Source: an uncultured Bacilli bacterium (GTDB lineage: Bacteria > Bacillota_I > Bacilli_A > RF39 > UBA660). From it: a stretch of DNA of 34,493 bases. Where the stretch lies: contig CALVQY010000015.1 in NCBI GenBank assembly GCA_944358355.1, forward strand, positions 1 through 34,493, given 5' to 3'. The notes beneath the pieces are model-generated. The model did not search any database. It had not been told where the DNA came from and worked only from the letters and a program-made list of their open reading frames with translations. Of the stretch, positions 2,342 to 19,273 are shown one piece after another (the first letter of the stretch is position 1; each line of letters begins with the position of its first letter). The position numbers were made by a program, and so were the translations under genes.

Positions 2342-2890
2342 TTACTTTCTAAAAGGAATTCCAAGACCTTTTAATAAGTCATATGCTTCTTCATTAGTTT
2401 TTGCAGTGGTAACGAAAACGATATCCATACCACGAACTTTTACAATTTCATCATAGTTAATTTCACTAAAGATTAATTGTTCTTTAATTCCTAATGTATA
2501 ATTACCACGACCATCAAAAGACTTAGGATTTACTCCTCTAAAATCACGTACTTGTGGAAGTGAGATAGAAATTAGTTTATCAACAAAGTTATACATGTTA
2601 TCGCCTCTAAGTGTTGCTTTACATCCAATTTTTTGTCCTTCTCTAATTTTAAATCCAGCGATTGATTTTTTAGCTTTAGTAACTACTGGTTTTTGACCTG
2701 TAATTTTTTCAAGATCTTTCATAGCAGCATCTAATAGTTTAGAGTTTGTTGTAGCATCTCCAACACCCATATTGATAACTACTTTTTCTAGTTTAGGTAC
2801 TTCCATTATTGATTTATATCCATATTTGCTCATAAGAGCTGGAACTACTTCTTTTAAATATTTATCTTTTAATCTTAAGTTTTTACTCAT
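2342..2890 (-). CDS. rplE: Ribosomal protein L5
   Basis: A 5S rRNA-binding protein that contacts the P-site tRNA. I take the ATG at 2890 ([11 protein letters not shown], 182 residues). An upstream in-frame GTG at 2911 overlaps the GGAGG ribosome binding site at 2901-2905, which is correctly spaced for the ATG. Conserved blocks include [54 protein letters not shown] and the C-terminal [18 protein letters not shown]. Confidence 0.98.
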
Positions 2891-2910
2891 ATAAACTGTA
2901 CCTCCTTCCA

Positions 2911-3219
2911 CTAATCTAGTACTTCTTTTGATTTTGTACTTATTCTAACTTTTTTTCCATTTTTATCAGTTGTATGTCCGATTCTTGTACCTTTTTTAGT
3001 TTTAGGATCAATAATCATAACATTAGATGCATCAATAGGAGCTTCTATTTCTAAGATTCCTCCAGAATTTTGTCCTGTAGGCTTTTGATGTTTTTTAACA
3101 ATGTGTACTCCTTCTACTATAACTTTATTTTCTTTTCTTAATGTTTTAATTATTTTTCCTTCTTTTCCTTTATCGGCACCGCTTATAACAACAACTTTAT
3201 CTCCTTGTTTTAACTTCAT
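2911..3219 (-). CDS. rplX: Ribosomal protein L24
   Basis: Assembly-initiating 23S rRNA-binding protein of 102 residues. The N-terminal KOW motif is visible as [20 protein letters not shown], followed by the block [13 protein letters not shown]. It ends near [25 protein letters not shown] precedes the ATG. The family assignment is clear. Confidence 0.98.
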
Positions 3220-3230
3220 AATTTTCCTCC

Positions 3231-9738: not shown

Positions 9739-10626
9739 ATGTTAACAAGAGAAGTTATACAGAAAATGAGAAAAACTGGTGAAATACCAACTGTTGATTT
9801 AAAAATATTCAATGATATTTATTCTTTACCAGTTAGTAGATTTGTAACAGATCACGAAAATGATACAGAAGAGTATTATACACACTATTTAAATGATATG
9901 TTAGAATTAAAAGGAGATGATTTGATTGCTTATTTAAATGCTATTAAGTCTGTAGAAATAGTCGATAATCAGTCTTTGGAAAAAGAAGATAGCTTTTTAA
10001 TGAGTTTATATATGCAAACTGAAAAAACAAATGCAATTGATTATCTTCTTGATAATGGATATGTATTAAATAGAGATGCTTTTGTAAACGCACACAAATT
10101 AATATTAAAAGGAACTAGCAGTCAACAATTTGCAGATAAAGATTGTAGAACTGATAATGAAGCTTTTGTTGTTAGAATAGAAAATGGTAGCCCTAAAATT
10201 CGTTATTTTGCTTTACCATATACGGATATCGAAGAAGCAATCAAGAAAATTATAGAATTCTATAATTCTGATGCTTATGATAACAGAATCTTTTTAAAAT
10301 CACAAATAGTTCATGGCCTAGTAGCAACATTACAATTATTTGATGATGGTAATACAAGATATGCACGTATTTTACAGAATATTAAATTAGCTGAACTTAC
10401 TAATAAAAAATATGATAAAAATCTTAAATTGCCTGCTTTATATGGTACTAGAGCTTATTTTCCTCATAGAAATAAATATCGTGAATTAATTGGTAATTTA
10501 GCGATTAATCCTAATTATGAAAATTGGGATGCTTGGTTTAATTTTAATCTAAATAGAACTGAAGATGCTATATTCTTTATTGATAATAAATTGTCATCTT
10601 ATAAAAAAATGATTTATAAAAGATAG
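9739..10626 (+). CDS. Fic-domain-like protein with altered catalytic motif
   Basis: A 295-residue cytosolic protein without signal or membrane segments. Fic proteins usually transfer AMP or another NMP to a target hydroxyl, using the motif HPFxDGNGRxxR. The aligned stretch here, around residues 195-215, reads VHGLVATLQLFDDGNTRYAR. The DGN core and both Arg residues are present, but Gln stands where the catalytic His is expected and Thr replaces the second Gly. Upstream, NAHKLILKG and the following region fit the Fic fold. The missing His suggests loss of ordinary AMPylation or a different chemistry. It is followed after 8 bases by the PHP gene, probably in one transcript. The fold is fairly sure; the function is unknown. 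Confidence 0.7.
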   Translation: MLTREVIQKMRKTGEIPTVDLKIFNDIYSLPVSRFVTDHENDTEEYYTHYLNDMLELKGDDLIAYLNAIKSVEIVDNQSLEKEDSFLMSLYMQTEKTNAIDYLLDNGYVLNRDAFVNAHKLILKGTSSQQFADKDCRTDNEAFVVRIENGSPKIRYFALPYTDIEEAIKKIIEFYNSDAYDNRIFLKSQIVHGLVATLQLFDDGNTRYARILQNIKLAELTNKKYDKNLKLPALYGTRAYFPHRNKYRELIGNLAINPNYENWDAWFNFNLNRTEDAIFFIDNKLSSYKKMIYKR

Positions 10627-12969: not shown

Positions 12970-15900
12970 TTATTTTAATACTTTGGAATATTTCTTAATA
13001 ACCTCCTTATCTATATAGGTATTATCTTCAAATAAAATTAAAGGAATATTATTTTGAAATAGTTCTTGCAAATAAGTTATTTGAACTAATTCATCTATTT
13101 TAATTTGTGATGCAAATATTCCTATAGATTTATCTAAATTAATTTTATCTAACACATGTAATTCACCATCATAATTAGGATTTCTAAGTGGATATTTTGA
13201 ATTTAAAAATTCAATTGCAATCCTTTCTTGTTCAAATGCTGGTTTACCAAATACACAAATATTATCTGTTAAAATAAATGTTTTAGAGCCAGCATAGGAA
13301 TTATAAACACCACTATTTACTCTTGCTACAGAAATAAAATTTTCACCATTACAGCCAATACCTCCTGCATGTCTTCCATATTTTGCTGATGTAATAGCAT
13401 TATCTTTTAATATTTTACTAAATGTTTCTAAAGAATTAGGCCTATGGGTATAGTATTTTTCTTTTAATTCAAATTGTTGTCTTTTATCATTTTGCAAATA
13501 AGCCAATATTTTTTCTATATTAAACTGATAATTTTTGATATTTAATAATATATCTATATTTTCTTTAGGAGTTTTAATAATATTAGGTACAGAAGTTATT
13601 TTTAAGTCTTCATTTTTAAGATACGTTTTTGCTTCTTTAAATAATCTTTTATCATTTCCTCTATAATAAAAGTCATAAGTGTTATTGTCTTTATATCCTA
13701 TAAACCAGTCTTCATTTAAGTAGCCGTCTATATAATTAGTAGTTATCTTTTCATATTTATTATTATTTTCAAGACAATAGTCAAAATAAATAGAATTTAT
13801 TTCTCTTTTTAAATAATCTTTATCACAATTTTTAAATCTTTTAACTTCTTTTCTTATATATTTATATATAGGTTCTATATCATCTGTTTTTAAATCATCT
13901 TTATATTTACCAGATAAAATTAATTGTTTTTTTGAGGAATCTTCAAGATATAGATATTCTTTTGAATTTGGCTTAAATAAGTTTTCAGTATAATCATTTA
14001 CTTTTGGTAATTCATCTAAGAAGGAATTAGATACATCAATATCATTTCTTCCTATTATTACTAATTTAATACCACTATTTTCTTTTTCAGCAGTTATTTC
14101 TCTTATGGTTTCAGCAGTATTTTTATAAGCAGTATAGATTATATATTCAGGATTATCTAATTTATAACTATTCTCTGTTACTTCAATATTATCAAAACAA
14201 AGTACTTCTCCTGTGCGCCAAACCCAACTATAAGAGACTATATTATCTTGATATGTTACTTTAAAAAATCTCCCATGAGGATTAATAGCACCGTGTCTTA
14301 GACAACTAGAAGCTTTCCCAGCTGGAGTTAAACAACTGCTTATTAGTTTATCTTTTACTATGTATTTTTCAATACCATTTGATATTATTTCTTCACTATG
14401 CATATCAATCATTTCATATTCACAATTATTTACTTTCCCCTTTATATCAGGAATAGATGAATATAGTCTAAATCTATAATTATTATATAATTTTATTCCC
14501 TCAACTTTTTCGCTTAAAGGTATACCTTTATGAACAAAATTTAATTTTTCTAAGTTATTTTCAATATTATAATTATTTGGAAATAAAGCATAGGCAATAG
14601 AATCTACCATGTTTTTTATTCGCATAAATTTTATCTTAGTGTTTTTTTGTTCATACAGTAAATTAAAACAAGTGAAAAATGCACTTATTGTATATTCCTC
14701 TTTAGTAGTAGAGATATCTATAATATCCAACAATAATGGTTTTATTTTTTCTATATAGTCAGTTGGTTTCTGCTTTAATAACGTAGTAATATAATCTAAT
14801 TTAGTAAAATCTTTATTTATTATTTTTTTTGTTATATCGTATCCTAATATTTTAAGTGCATCAATTATTACCTGATTATCTTTATCAAAATTAATTATTA
14901 CTTTTTCTGTTATATTGAGATTTTGTATATTAAGTATACCAATTATTATAGGATTAATTTTATCAATATTAATTAATATTTTTTCTACCACATCACGTTC
15001 TTGTGTGTTAAGCGTGTCAATTATTGCCCAATTATCTTTATTTATCAGATTATCTTTATCAATATTTAGTTTTTTTATTCTTTCTATATCTTTTTTATTA
15101 AATAAAGAGTTTAATTCTAAATACTGCTTTGCATTATAATTTTTAACGATTTCAAAAGAAGTATTTATATTTAAATTAAATTTACCTGACTTATAATAAT
15201 GATAAAGGGTTTTTTTATTATCTATTTTTAATATTTGAAATATATTTTTACGATTAATTACTCTTTGGAATAGTGCCTCTATAATTTTTATTTCTTCTTT
15301 AGTTATTTTATCTTTATATTTAGATAAAAATTCTTTTAAAAATATCTGAAAACATTTTAAATATAGTGGTTCTTTTTTTCTTTCAGATGATGATAGCATT
15401 TCCAGTTTATTTAGAGCATTTATATATTTTAATGAAAACAGATCGTCTAAAATATCATCACCAAAATCATAACCTTTAATTTTATTACGTAATAATTTAT
15501 TAAAATTGTCAATAACTATATTATTTGAATTTGTTAATATATGTGGTTGTTTTAGACATGATATTAGTATTTCTAATATTTCTTTATTATCTATTTGCAT
15601 GAGACTATTTATTTCTTCATAAGAAACATTATGCCTAGTAATTTTTTTGTTAAAGGTAGTTAAAAGCTCATCTATATAATTTTTGTTAAATTCTTTTTTT
15701 AGAGCATAGGAAAATATATCACCTAGTTCTTTAAAATTCATAAGAGATAGATACTTATGACAGTATTTAATAATGGAATCATTATAATAAAATTTTATAT
15801 CCTCTAAAAACAACTTACAGATTGGATATATTATAGTTTCATCAAGAGATATAAGTTTTAACTTATAATTAGTATCTTTGAAGTTATAATAAAAAAGAGA

Positions 15901-16284
15901 TTCAATTTCTTCAAATGTATCAAGTTCATCTATACTATATTCATCAACAAAGACTGTTTCTTGAAATTTCTTTTTAAAAAACTGATAATGCTTTTTAGCA
16001 TATTTAAAAAATGATTCTTTATCATTAATTGTCAATAGAACATCAAATCTATCTTTTTCATTTATACATATATCATATAGATTTAAAACTTGATCAAAAT
16101 ATGATTTATCTGCTTTTTTATTTTTCTCTCGTAAATAATAGATATTAATTTTTTTAATTAATTTATATATATTTTCAGAAGTAAGGAATGGTTTAGTTTC
16201 TAAAATATATTGTATTTGCTTTGAGAAGTCATCATAATTATCTTCTTCTAAAAATAGCCAGTCAAAAGAATCACTTTTTTTCAT
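12970..16284 (-). CDS. Giant protein of unknown function with possible GNAT-like and ART-like domains
   Basis: A 1104-residue Lys/Asn/Ile-rich protein with no signal peptide or clear membrane segment. Residues 1-590 look mostly helical and include a short tandem repeat at about 412-490. Residues 600-750 hold a compact conserved-looking domain, with NPHGRFFKVTYQDNIVSYSW, then WVWRTGEVLCFDNIEV and IKLVIIGRNDIDV. Its strand-helix-strand order recalls an acetyltransferase fold, but no acetyl-CoA loop is obvious. Residues 940-1060 read THRPNSLETFSKILKDN, NGENFISVARV and YDGELHVLDKI, which weakly recalls ADP-ribosyltransferase-like proteins. The ATG overlaps the ankyrin gene by 14 bases and has its own AAGGA, so the two proteins are made together. 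Both domain ideas are inferences, and no function can be assigned. Confidence 0.85.
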   Translation of the reverse strand: MKKSDSFDWLFLEEDNYDDFSKQIQYILETKPFLTSENIYKLIKKINIYYLREKNKKADKSYFDQVLNLYDICINEKDRFDVLLTINDKESFFKYAKKHYQFFKKKFQETVFVDEYSIDELDTFEEIESLFYYNFKDTNYKLKLISLDETIIYPICKLFLEDIKFYYNDSIIKYCHKYLSLMNFKELGDIFSYALKKEFNKNYIDELLTTFNKKITRHNVSYEEINSLMQIDNKEILEILISCLKQPHILTNSNNIVIDNFNKLLRNKIKGYDFGDDILDDLFSLKYINALNKLEMLSSSERKKEPLYLKCFQIFLKEFLSKYKDKITKEEIKIIEALFQRVINRKNIFQILKIDNKKTLYHYYKSGKFNLNINTSFEIVKNYNAKQYLELNSLFNKKDIERIKKLNIDKDNLINKDNWAIIDTLNTQERDVVEKILINIDKINPIIIGILNIQNLNITEKVIINFDKDNQVIIDALKILGYDITKKIINKDFTKLDYITTLLKQKPTDYIEKIKPLLLDIIDISTTKEEYTISAFFTCFNLLYEQKNTKIKFMRIKNMVDSIAYALFPNNYNIENNLEKLNFVHKGIPLSEKVEGIKLYNNYRFRLYSSIPDIKGKVNNCEYEMIDMHSEEIISNGIEKYIVKDKLISSCLTPAGKASSCLRHGAINPHGRFFKVTYQDNIVSYSWVWRTGEVLCFDNIEVTENSYKLDNPEYIIYTAYKNTAETIREITAEKENSGIKLVIIGRNDIDVSNSFLDELPKVNDYTENLFKPNSKEYLYLEDSSKKQLILSGKYKDDLKTDDIEPIYKYIRKEVKRFKNCDKDYLKREINSIYFDYCLENNNKYEKITTNYIDGYLNEDWFIGYKDNNTYDFYYRGNDKRLFKEAKTYLKNEDLKITSVPNIIKTPKENIDILLNIKNYQFNIEKILAYLQNDKRQQFELKEKYYTHRPNSLETFSKILKDNAITSAKYGRHAGGIGCNGENFISVARVNSGVYNSYAGSKTFILTDNICVFGKPAFEQERIAIEFLNSKYPLRNPNYDGELHVLDKINLDKSIGIFASQIKIDELVQITYLQELFQNNIPLILFEDNTYIDKEVIKKYSKVLK
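14821..15060 (-). repeat. Three imperfect tandem repeats of about 78 bp inside the giant gene
   Basis: The encoded units are similar: KDNWAIIDTLNTQERDVVEK, then KINPIIIGILNIQNLNITEK, then KDNQVIIDALKILGYDITKK, each about 26 residues and starting after an (I/N)-(I/F/K)D-like step. The DNA is also visibly repeated (AATTATTA and TTTATCAA words recur at the same spacing). The pattern fits a small helical solenoid that grew by in-frame duplication. Confidence 0.6.
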
Positions 16285-17893
16285 TACGATATGTCCTTAC
16301 TTTTTCAGCTTGTTTTTTATTATCAGTTAATTTAGAATCAACAAAATTCCATATCTCTTCACCAGTTAAAAGTCCACTCTTTTCTCCATTTGATACTAAG
16401 TTTAATAGTTCGACTATTTTATTATTAATAGTTTCCCAGAATATATTCTTATTTTTTTCTATTAATTCAATTAACTTATCTTCTAAGCTATTTATTTCAT
16501 CAACTGTAAGATATGCATAATCTAATTCATCAAATATTTCTATTTTTTTATCATCTTTTACTATGTTCATACTATTTACGCTATTTATTACATTAATTTT
16601 TAATTTTATAGCTTCTATTTGTTCTATAAATAATATTTCTTTTTTATTTAATTCTTCTAATAATGTTTTTTTAATATCTTCATTGTAAATATTTTCTATT
16701 CTTTCTTTTAAAGCATTCATATCTTTTAAAGTTTTACATTCCTTAATATCATTTATAGATATTTCTTTACTACTTTCTTTTATTATTTCATTAAGTAACT
16801 GTAATTCATCTTCATAATTAAAAGCTATTAACATGGCTTTTAATCTATCAACATTTTCAATAGTTTGATTTTCTATAATATAATTATTAATGGTTTCTTT
16901 TAGTAATAAATCCAATTTGTTAGATAATAATATAATGCTACTTTTCTCTCTTATACTTAAATCATTATTTTCAAGGTAAGTATTTAGTTTATTTTTATCA
17001 TTTAATATTGTAGCATAATTTAATAATAAAAATTCTATGGTTATATTAAGAAGCATTGCTTCTATTCTTGTTTTTAACTGATTAATTGTTTCATAGTCGA
17101 TGTTTTCTTGTTTTATAATATTATTTAATTGATTTTCTTTACTTTCTTCTTTTTGGATTTTCTCTTTATCCTCTAAATCCACTATTAATATTTGGTCTTC
17201 ATCTTCTATATCTTCTTCTATTGTTTGTAGATCTTTAGTATCTTCTATAGTTTCTTCCGTTGTTTGGATATTTTCTTTAACTTTTTCATTATTTTTTTCT
17301 ATATATGACTTTATTTTTTCTCTTTCTTGAGATAACCTGTCATACCAAATCTTATTTTTAGTTTGGCTTGCTTCTTGCTTATATCCAATTAAGGCTTCAT
17401 AGATATTATTATCATTATTATCTTTACATTGTAAATCATACTCATCACCTAAAGCATCAATTAAATTAGCAGTATCACCGGTATAAACTTCGCTGGCAAG
17501 TGCTGTATGAATTAGACTATCACCATCATTATCTTTAATATTAACATCAAAATTATATTTTTTAGCTAAAGAAATCAATTTATTAATAAATTCAGTTGAA
17601 TATGAATAATCTTCTCCATTTTCTGTATATCCATAAAGTGCTAGATGAATAAAACTATATCCTGTACTTTTACCTTTTAAATTAACATCGACACCGCATT
17701 GCAACAATGTATCTATAAATTTTAAGACTTTATCTTCGGGAAATTTATTTTGAACTGCAGCATGCAATAATCCACCATATTCATTAATCTTATTTATATC
17801 ATTAAAATATTTCTTTATATTTTCTTTAGTAATCTCATCTAATTTGTGTTCTTTAAAAAAATTACTCATCTCTTCATTAATATCTGTTTTCAA
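16271..17893 (-). CDS. Ankyrin-repeat and coiled-coil protein, partner of the giant protein
   Basis: About 540 residues with no signal or membrane segment. Ankyrin-like units fill roughly residues 35-180: GGLLHAAVQNK, CGVDVNLKGKSTGYSFIHLA, FDVNIKDNDGDSLIHTALAS and a decayed last unit near NNIYEALIGYK. The rest is Glu/Lys/Asn-rich, with an acidic linker around 200-250 followed by long coiled-coil-type helices. I place the start at TTG 17893 (MKTDINEEM), because GGAGAG lies nine bases upstream and the in-frame GTG at 17902 overlaps that site. Its TGA stop lies inside the start of the giant gene. Ankyrin repeats usually bind proteins, so this may be an adaptor for its neighbour; that is inference. 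Confidence 0.8.
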   Translation of the reverse strand: MKTDINEEMSNFFKEHKLDEITKENIKKYFNDINKINEYGGLLHAAVQNKFPEDKVLKFIDTLLQCGVDVNLKGKSTGYSFIHLALYGYTENGEDYSYSTEFINKLISLAKKYNFDVNIKDNDGDSLIHTALASEVYTGDTANLIDALGDEYDLQCKDNNDNNIYEALIGYKQEASQTKNKIWYDRLSQEREKIKSYIEKNNEKVKENIQTTEETIEDTKDLQTIEEDIEDEDQILIVDLEDKEKIQKEESKENQLNNIIKQENIDYETINQLKTRIEAMLLNITIEFLLLNYATILNDKNKLNTYLENNDLSIREKSSIILLSNKLDLLLKETINNYIIENQTIENVDRLKAMLIAFNYEDELQLLNEIIKESSKEISINDIKECKTLKDMNALKERIENIYNEDIKKTLLEELNKKEILFIEQIEAIKLKINVINSVNSMNIVKDDKKIEIFDELDYAYLTVDEINSLEDKLIELIEKNKNIFWETINNKIVELLNLVSNGEKSGLLTGEEIWNFVDSKLTDNKKQAEKVRTYRNEKK

Positions 17894-17926
17894 AATAATC
17901 ACTCTCCATATTTGTAAATTGTTCTT

Positions 17927-17955
17927 ATACTATCATATTAAAGTATTTTTATCAA
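17927..17955 (-). promoter_or_regulatory. Promoter of the ankyrin/giant gene pair
   Basis: TTGATA (17950-17955) and TAGTAT (17927-17932) lie 17 bases apart, upstream of the GGAGAG site. The -35 box is close to the right end of the TnpB element, so the insertion sits at the very edge of this promoter. Confidence 0.5.
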
Positions 17956-17959
17956 CGAA

Positions 17960-18130
17960 CAAATAAAACAAAATAAATTTTGTTTCGCCCTTGTCGTTAC
18001 CTCCAAGGATTCCTACTTAATAGATAGAGTAACCTCTATTCTCCATAGGCTTAAATTCCGATAGTCGCTACCGTACTAATTTATTTTTTCTATTAAATTG
18101 TTATTTTTCTATGTAAAATATTATCTATAC
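17960..18130 (-). ncRNA. TnpB omega-RNA (guide RNA scaffold)
   Basis: TnpB nucleases use an RNA that spans the tnpB 3' end and the right end of the element. Downstream of the stop, the minus-strand RNA shows four hairpins in a row: CGGTAG/CTATCG (18059-18073), TAGAG/CTCTA (18025-18038), CCTTG/CAAGG (17989-18008) and AAACAAAA/TTTTGTTT (17966-17985). The stretch GGAATTTAAGCCTATGGAG resembles the conserved core I recall from Firmicutes IS605-type right ends. The guide would be the bases just beyond the last hairpin, toward 17945. Exact ends are unknown. Confidence 0.65.
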
Positions 18131-19273
18131 TAAACTAACTAAATTATAGTGTAACTTTAATCCTTCAAATAATATGTTTAAACTTGCATTTATATCTCTA
18201 TCATTATGTATTCCACATCTTGGACAATCATACTCTCTTATACTTAAATTCTTTAACTTACTATTCTTATAGCCACAATGACTACATATTTGACTACTTG
18301 GATAATAAGTATTTATTTTATAATAAATCTTTCCTTTTATCTTACATTTCCACTCTATTAGAGAACGTAATCTACTAACACATGCATCTGATAGAATTTT
18401 ATTAAATGCTTTCCTCTTATCTTTAAACATATCTTTTACTAATAAACTCTCTGTTACTATAATGTCATGTTCATCAACTATTTCATTTGCAATATCGTTT
18501 AAATAATGTTTTCTATAATTCTTTATCTTATCATGTAACCTTGCTATCTTTTCTTTTGTTTTTAAATAGTTTTTACTACCTTTAATTTGTCTTGATAACT
18601 TTCTTTGTAATCTTTTTAATCTCTTTTCAAACTTCATTAATACTTTCTCGTTACCATATTTAATACCATCACTTGTTATTACTAAATCTTTTATTCCTAA
18701 ATCTATTCCTACTATATTAGTAGGTGTTACTTTATCTATTAAGATATCTTCTACTACAACTACACTTACATAATATTTACTTGTAGGCTCTCTTGATATA
18801 GTCGCATTTAATATTTTACCTTCTATTCTATCTTTGGTTCTAAATCCTCTTATTTTTACTTTGCCTAGTTTAGGTAATTTTATAAATCTACTTAATAAAT
18901 CTACTTCTATATTACTATATTCTTTTCCTTTTTTGGTACTTCTTATACAACTAGTTCTATAAGACTGCCTACTAAATCTATTTTTAAATTTAGGATAACC
19001 TTTTCTTTTAGCATAATAATCATTAAAAGCTTTACATAAATCATCTATAGCAGAACATAATACAGTTGAATCTACTTCTTTTAAAAATTCATTTTCTTCT
19101 TTTAATTTAGGTAAATCTTTATGTAAATCAAATCTATTTATACCATTATTATCTTTTAAATAATTAAGATAATGATTATATACAAATCTTTTGCATCCTA
19201 AAGTTTTATTAATTAATATCTTTTGGTCATCTGTTGGATATAACCTAAATTTATATGCTCTATACATCTCCAT
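18125..19273 (-). CDS. tnpB: TnpB RNA-guided nuclease
   Basis: A 382-residue protein of the family ancestral to Cas12. The N-terminal helix-turn-helix region begins YRAYKFRLYPTDDQK. The RuvC-like nuclease residues are Asp191 (GIDLGIKDLVIT), Glu275 (IIVTESLLVKDMF) and Asp360 (HNDRDINASLNI). The zinc finger Cys330, Cys333, Cys350 and Cys353 is complete (ICSHCGYKNSK, YDCPRCG). Length and residue spacing are close to the characterised ISDra2 protein, so the enzyme should be active. GGGGG lies upstream of the ATG. In known systems TnpB cuts the site left after excision and helps keep the element. Confidence 0.95.
   Translation of the reverse strand: MEMYRAYKFRLYPTDDQKILINKTLGCKRFVYNHYLNYLKDNNGINRFDLHKDLPKLKEENEFLKEVDSTVLCSAIDDLCKAFNDYYAKRKGYPKFKNRFSRQSYRTSCIRSTKKGKEYSNIEVDLLSRFIKLPKLGKVKIRGFRTKDRIEGKILNATISREPTSKYYVSVVVVEDILIDKVTPTNIVGIDLGIKDLVITSDGIKYGNEKVLMKFEKRLKRLQRKLSRQIKGSKNYLKTKEKIARLHDKIKNYRKHYLNDIANEIVDEHDIIVTESLLVKDMFKDKRKAFNKILSDACVSRLRSLIEWKCKIKGKIYYKINTYYPSSQICSHCGYKNSKLKNLSIREYDCPRCGIHNDRDINASLNILFEGLKLHYNLVSLV

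What the first reader, a model, noticed from the sequence alone, without database searches (positions are those of the whole stretch)
12970..17893. Two-gene module: ankyrin/coiled-coil protein coupled to an uncharacterised 1104-residue protein
The two genes overlap by 14 bases, share one promoter and make up nearly 5 kb with no recognisable family. One partner has protein-binding repeats; the other is giant, cytosolic and multi-domain. They sit between dinB and a mobile element, on an accessory stretch. A two-protein effector, toxin or defence system would fit this layout, but it is inference; nothing seen proves such a role.
Basis: partly seen in the sequence, partly recalled or inferred. Interest (0 to 1): 0.8.

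Follow-up and report, generated by a model that had tools for sequence, protein, structure and literature searches.

The report
Coupled ankyrin–ADP-ribosyltransferase-like effector pair
A gut-type Bacilli bacterium carries a tightly linked pair of genes, an ankyrin coiled-coil protein and a 1104-residue partner ending in a probable NAD-using (ADP-ribosyltransferase-like) domain; the pair stays together across at least eleven genera and looks like an undescribed two-protein effector or toxin system, although no activity has been shown.

Summary
In detail: two same-strand genes overlap by exactly 14 bases, share a conserved upstream promoter, lie between dinB and a recently inserted TnpB element, and match no Pfam, NCBIfam, PADLOC or PHROGs family. 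Searches of relatives' genomes add four things. (1) The pair is real: all 13 strong homologues of the ankyrin partner in 385 genomes lie within 26 bp of the large protein (15 loci, 11 genera, counting two found separately; once in swapped order). (2) The large protein contains an undescribed core domain (residues 586-790), found in 102 of 385 genomes of the order and almost absent elsewhere; sister clades pair it with other genes (aldehyde-dehydrogenase-like, M20-like peptidase). (3) Its last ~200 residues form an ART-like domain (invariant H947, E1041) that also exists as a stand-alone gene; the copy in this genome sits inside an NAD-biosynthesis cluster. (4) ART-like domain and coiled-coil partner go together (9/9); versions without it have an ankyrin-ClpB-like AAA partner (4) or ankyrin alone (2). 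Best reading: an NAD-dependent effector controlled by its ankyrin partner. Coupling is well supported, ART likely, and the defence or toxin role is inference.

The parts
12970..16284 (-). Large protein (1104 aa): N-terminal helical region, core domain, C-terminal ART-like domain
   Evidence: ORF; core homologues in 102/385 genomes of the order; dN/dS 0.29-0.32
14665..16284 (-). N-terminal, helical-looking, fast-evolving region (residues 1-540), conserved only among close relatives
   Evidence: alignment A3; sliding divergence
13915..14529 (-). Undescribed core domain (residues 586-790) with near-invariant G, C, H, GR, SWxWR, CFDNxE; weak GNAT-like signal
   Evidence: A1 and genome searches; hhalign against a GNAT profile P=0.0037 versus best 0.073 among 35 unrelated families
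12979..13575 (-). C-terminal ART-like domain (residues 904-1102); H947, F983/S985, E1041
   Evidence: 36-sequence alignment with H 36/36 and E 36/36; stand-alone homologues
16271..17902 (-). Ankyrin / coiled-coil partner (543 aa from GTG 17902; probable start TTG 17893)
   Evidence: ORF; orthologues in 15 loci, all adjacent to the large gene
17348..17785 (-). Ankyrin region of the partner (residues 40-185), the part conserved in all partners
   Evidence: ankN profile; Pfam Ank_4 in orthologues
16274..17347 (-). Helical, proline/glycine-poor coiled-coil-like C-terminal half (3 P+G in its last 343 residues); a ClpA/B-like AAA domain takes its place in four relatives
16271..16284 (-). 14-base overlap of the two genes (stop of partner / start of large protein)
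17927..17955 (-). Promoter-like site TTGATA-17-TAGTAT, conserved in L022 and L023

Best explanation
The two genes form one functional module. Shown: they are laid out for co-transcription, inherited together, and vary together in architecture. Inferred: the large protein is a cytosolic NAD+-dependent effector whose C-terminal ART-like domain (H947, F983-x-S985, E1041) transfers ADP-ribose to a target or hydrolyses NAD; the core domain is a second, possibly acyltransferase-like, catalytic or regulatory domain; the fast-evolving helical N-terminus senses or binds. The ankyrin protein binds the large protein and holds it inactive or presents it to its target (antitoxin or adaptor), its coiled coil working with the ART-like domain. 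In relatives without the ART-like domain a ClpB-like AAA motor often takes the coil's place. The module most probably serves conflict: an anti-phage abortive response or a toxin-antitoxin-like function.
For: Pairing: 13 of 13 strong ankyrin-partner hits in 385 genomes lie within 26 bp of the core protein, same strand, one in swapped order, plus pairs L022 and L208; contexts differ (dinB; infC-rplT; rplK-nusG; uvrA). Co-variation: ART-like domain present 9/9 with coiled-coil partner, absent 6/6 with AAA or ankyrin-only partner. ART: invariant H and E in 36 sequences; YYHGT motif in L170 and in the paired protein L208; two members match Pfam DarT weakly, best E=0.0074; stand-alone copy in this genome between nadD and pncC, with prs, a NUDIX/NrtR-like gene and NAD kinase, same cluster in L217 and L215 and next to pncC in L213. 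Conflict-like behaviour: patchy; dN/dS 0.29-0.34 against 0.06 for dinB; ankyrin gene and 5' end of the large gene nearly identical to L022 (ankyrin gene dS 0.007) while dinB dS is 0.31, i.e. recent exchange; partner swapping across the core tree.
Against: No member matches an ART family above cut-off and no PDB sequence matches. Both structure predictions failed (pLDDT 30 and 32), so no fold is shown. The window domain itself has YTHRPN, not HGT. Only 4 of about 16 stand-alone loci examined have NAD genes beside them. The ART-bearing proteins form one branch of the core tree, so the link with the coiled-coil partner may be a single event. No defence genes surround the pair and there is no PADLOC match. 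The toxin-antitoxin or defence role rests on analogy.
Confidence: 0.5

Rival explanations
1. A housekeeping or regulatory protein-modification pair (ADP-ribosylation and/or acylation of cellular targets, tied to NAD status), not a conflict system.
For: Stand-alone ART-like genes sit in an NAD-synthesis cluster; loci often lie among translation and repair genes; the ALDH-like partner of a sister clade also belongs to an NAD(P)-using family; no defence-island context.
Against: Patchy even within the genus, fast protein evolution and recent exchange between strains, partner swapping and tandem copies.
Confidence: 0.22
2. An exported effector pair (for example by type VII secretion) acting on rival bacteria or host cells, with the ankyrin protein as chaperone or immunity protein.
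For: One sister-clade protein (L039) follows a WXG100-like gene and has a long extra N-terminus; ankyrin immunity proteins are known in polymorphic toxin systems (PMC3482391); the C-terminal domain also occurs as a stand-alone cassette.
Against: No signal, LXG/WXG or transmembrane region seen in either window protein; only one secretion-linked relative seen; the partner gene usually lies upstream.
Confidence: 0.12
3. The C-terminal domain is not an ART; it is another small enzyme or a binding domain with a conserved His and Glu, and the module's chemistry is that of the core domain alone.
For: No family or PDB match above threshold; structure predictions failed; six paired loci lack the domain altogether.
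Against: H - [YF][IV]S - E order, YYHGT variants, weak DarT match, NAD-gene neighbourhoods.
Confidence: 0.16

Closest known systems
CmdTAC anti-phage system (PMC11618068)
   Same: A proposed ART effector encoded next to a protein that would hold it in check; chaperone-type parts also occur in the relatives (ClpB-like AAA).
   Different: CmdTAC has an ART toxin, an antitoxin and a chaperone; here two genes, an ankyrin partner and a giant multi-domain protein. Sequence relation to CmdT was not tested directly.
DarTG toxin-antitoxin (Pfam DarT)
   Same: Two of 36 ART-like domain members match Pfam DarT weakly (best E 0.0074); His/Glu signature.
   Different: Match is weak; partner is ankyrin/coiled coil, not a macrodomain; the domain is the tail of a 1104-aa protein.
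Polymorphic toxin systems with Imm-Ank immunity (PMC3482391)
   Same: Exchangeable C-terminal enzyme domain that also exists as a stand-alone gene; ankyrin partner.
   Different: No trafficking domain here; partner is usually upstream; the shared part is a core domain, not a delivery module.
Phage and conjugative-element polyvalent proteins with neighbouring GNAT and ART domains (PMC5512222)
   Same: Large proteins joining an ART and, perhaps, a GNAT-like domain in one polypeptide.
   Different: Here chromosomal with a dedicated partner gene; their ARTs are H-Y-D, here H-Y/F-E; no sequence relation shown.
Animal CLPB/Skd3 (from memory) as analogue of the ankyrin-AAA partner
   Same: Ankyrin repeats fused to a ClpB-type AAA domain (L081, L082, L083, L092).
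   Different: Analogy only; the window partner has a coiled coil instead.

Membership tests
ADP-ribosyltransferase superfamily | Conserved His, Tyr/Ser and Glu signature in order | tested here: met
   H 36/36, [YF] 34/36 with S 32/36, E 36/36
ADP-ribosyltransferase superfamily | Match to a curated ART family | tested here: inconclusive
   Pfam DarT matched by 2 of 36 members, best E 0.0074, weak; nothing credible in PDB sequences
ADP-ribosyltransferase superfamily | ART fold | tested here: inconclusive
ADP-ribosyltransferase superfamily | NAD+ binding and transfer | not testable with these tools
   Only indirect: stand-alone homologue within an NAD-synthesis cluster
GNAT acyltransferases (core domain) | Acyl-CoA motif R/Q-x-x-G-x-G/A after strand 4 | tested here: not met
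   The region after CFDNIE does not show it in the aligned members
GNAT acyltransferases (core domain) | Profile similarity | tested here: inconclusive
   hhalign P=0.0037, probability 9%, best of 36 compared profiles; no core protein hit by the GNAT HMM
PcfJ-like proteins (core domain) | Profile similarity | tested here: not met
   hhalign against one PcfJ protein, probability 0.1%
Ankyrin repeat proteins (partner) | Ankyrin repeats above curated cut-off | tested here: met
   Met in orthologue L029 (28.1 vs 22.7 bits); window protein itself below cut-off
DarTG | Macrodomain antitoxin partner | tested here: not met
   Partner is ankyrin/coiled coil
CmdTAC | Three genes: ART toxin, antitoxin, chaperone | tested here: not met
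   No third gene recurs beside the pair in the 15 loci
Polymorphic toxin systems | N-terminal trafficking domain | tested here: not met
   No signal, transmembrane or known secretion domain in the window protein
Polymorphic toxin systems | C-terminal enzyme domain also found as stand-alone cassette | tested here: met
   Matches in 35/291 genomes, most of them stand-alone genes
Known anti-phage defence systems | Match to PADLOC models | tested here: not met
   No match for either protein; for the ART-like domain set one weak hit to a type II restriction enzyme model (E 0.014) in one member

The most novel reading that the evidence does not exclude
An undescribed superfamily of intracellular immune or toxin systems built on a new core domain and largely confined to one family of Bacilli. 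Each clade has its own dedicated partner (ankyrin-coiled coil, ankyrin-ClpB motor, degenerate aldehyde dehydrogenase, M20-like peptidase); the ankyrin-coiled-coil clade has captured an NAD-consuming ART-like domain as its effector.
Probability: 0.3. Interest if true: 0.82.

Novelty: new variant of a known kind. Interest (0 to 1): 0.62.

Why it matters
About a quarter of sampled genomes in this order of uncultured Bacilli carry proteins with a core domain absent from Pfam, NCBIfam, PHROGs and PADLOC, often in genes of 1000-1900 codons within genomes of only 1-1.7 Mb. If the reading is right, this is a new partner-swapping effector system with an NAD-dependent arm, in a group for which I found no described system of this kind. 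The module offers direct tests: interaction of the pair, NAD+ turnover, and dependence on H947 and E1041.

Tried and rejected
PcfJ as relative of the core: rejected. GNAT as the core's family: motif absent, profile signal weak; kept only as a lead. DarT genes as a comparison profile: none in 120 genomes of the class. PDB sequence searches with the core and ART-like profiles: none, or chance hits to viral polymerases. Viral contigs, phages and plasmids: no relatives of the pair or of the ART-like domain; only a distant core homologue in Microcystis phage MaMV-DC and its close relative MaMV-DH01. The TnpB element as part of the module: rejected, absent upstream in L022 and L023. Weak ankyrin hits in five further genomes: ankyrin proteins not next to a core in four, none recovered in the fifth. 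Literature: no paper found describing the pair or the core.

Full report
Observation. The window is a whole contig (C15) of a 1.5 Mb, 93-contig assembly of a low-GC Bacilli; the nearest named relative is an 'uncultured Bacilli bacterium' MAG (L022). The partner probably starts at TTG 17893 behind GGAGAG. A promoter-like site lies at 17955-17927 and is conserved in L022 and L023, with the IS element inserted just upstream in the window strain only. No curated family matches either protein.

The pair is conserved. Searching 193 genomes of the family with the large protein gave near full-length relatives in two genomes (G054, same genus; G161, another genus) and domain-level relatives in 14 more, besides the window's own. 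Searching 385 genomes of the order with the core profile gave 102 genomes. Among the genomes outside the family sampled across class and phylum, one (G633) had a weak hit. In the same 385 genomes the ankyrin partner has 13 strong hits, and every one lies within 26 bp of a core protein on the same strand. With L022 and L208 that makes 15 loci in 11 genera. In L027 the order is reversed, yet the genes still overlap by 17 bp. Chromosomal contexts differ, so pairing is not just conserved synteny. Weak ankyrin hits elsewhere are other ankyrin proteins.

Anatomy of the large protein. Residues 1-540 are helical-looking and diverge fast. Residues 586-790 form the core, with near-invariant G, C, H, GR, SWxWR and CFDNxE. 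Its apparent strand order suggested a GNAT-like fold; hhalign against a 34-sequence GNAT profile gave P=0.0037 in that register, against a best of 0.073 for 35 unrelated families, but the probability is only 9% and the acyl-CoA motif is missing. I treat this as a lead. The core also occurs in a protein of Microcystis phage MaMV-DC.

The C-terminal domain. Residues 904-1102 recur as stand-alone genes of about 190-220 aa: a profile built only from paired proteins found one in the window's own genome at E=1.6e-9, and an extended profile found matches in 35 of 291 genomes. In 36 aligned members only a His and a Glu are invariant, with N-G and [YF]-[IV]-S nearly so. YYHGT at the His in some members (including the paired protein L208), the H-[YF]S-E order, and weak DarT matches point to an ADP-ribosyltransferase. 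Independent context agrees: the stand-alone copy in this genome lies in prs-nadD-[ART]-pncC-(262 aa)-NUDIX/NrtR-like-NAD kinase, each neighbour except the 262-aa protein identified against PDB sequences. The same enzymes cluster in L217 and L215, and ART-pncC in L213. Other stand-alone copies have unrelated neighbours. This is good but indirect evidence; no fold or activity is shown.

The partner and co-variation. The partner's ankyrin half is shared by all 15. Its other half is coiled-coil-like in the nine loci whose large protein has the ART-like domain. In the six without it, four partners carry a Walker-A AAA domain (Pfam AAA 9e-13 in L081; ClpA/B-like by its motifs, my reading) and two are ankyrin only. 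On the core tree the eight ART-bearing proteins included (L208 was found later) form one branch, so this may reflect one event, but it fits joint function of coil and ART-like domain.

A wider family. Sister clades pair the core with other dedicated genes: a degenerate aldehyde-dehydrogenase/ProA-like protein directly downstream in 19 loci (Pfam Aldedh E=1e-6, above cut-off in L035), an unknown 219-251-aa protein (4 loci) and an M20/M42-like peptidase (3 loci). N-termini vary as well: BspA-type leucine-rich repeats (L104) or a long region following a WXG100-like gene (L039).

Evolution. Against L022 the ankyrin gene has dS 0.007 and the first 120 or so codons of the large gene are nearly identical, while dinB next door has dS 0.31; against L023 both genes have dN/dS near 0.3 where dinB has 0.06. 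This indicates recent exchange and fast but constrained evolution, as expected of conflict genes, though not proof.

Mechanism. Most likely the large protein is an NAD-dependent effector, with the ankyrin protein as its keeper or adaptor. CmdTAC, in which a chaperone and an antitoxin restrain an ART until newly made phage capsid protein is sensed (PMC11618068), is the nearest working model. My estimates: coupling about 0.93, ART about 0.7, conflict role about 0.5. Nothing here shows toxicity or phage defence.

Noticed in passing
L172 (G000:C23) 2654-3223, with L217, L215, L213: Stand-alone ART-like gene inside or beside an NAD-biosynthesis cluster (prs, nadD, pncC, NUDIX/NrtR-like, NAD kinase) in the window's own genome and three relatives.
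   Followed up: yes
L028, L030-L033, L035-L039, L073-L080, L110: A sister clade of 1200-1900-aa core proteins has a degenerate aldehyde-dehydrogenase/ProA-like gene directly at its 3' end, usually overlapping, in 19 loci.
   Followed up: partly
L081, L082, L083, L092: Partner protein is ankyrin fused to a ClpA/B-type AAA domain, paired with core proteins lacking the ART-like tail.
   Followed up: partly
L104 2515-11993: Three tandem, very similar core proteins of about 1050 aa; the first carries N-terminal BspA-type leucine-rich repeats.
   Followed up: no
L039 1800-8359: A WXG100-like gene and two small genes precede an 1874-aa core protein, hinting at type VII secretion in one branch.
   Followed up: no
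L085 5784-14889: Two different core systems (M20-like-peptidase-partnered and ankyrin-partnered) lie side by side, divergently oriented.
   Followed up: no
L072 1519-3612 (Microcystis phage MaMV-DC ORF68L): Cyanophage protein of unknown function with a distant copy of the core domain.
   Followed up: partly
window 9739-10626: Fic-domain gene near the pair; also in L023 but replaced by an unrelated 178-aa ORF in L022.
   Followed up: no
window 12970-17902 versus L022: Ankyrin gene and 5' end of the large gene nearly identical between strains although dinB differs at dS 0.31: a recombination boundary inside the large gene.
   Followed up: partly
window 18125-19273: TnpB element inserted just upstream of the pair's promoter in this strain only.
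   Followed up: partly
L209, L210 (G796): Arrays of several tandem or fused ART-like genes.
   Followed up: no
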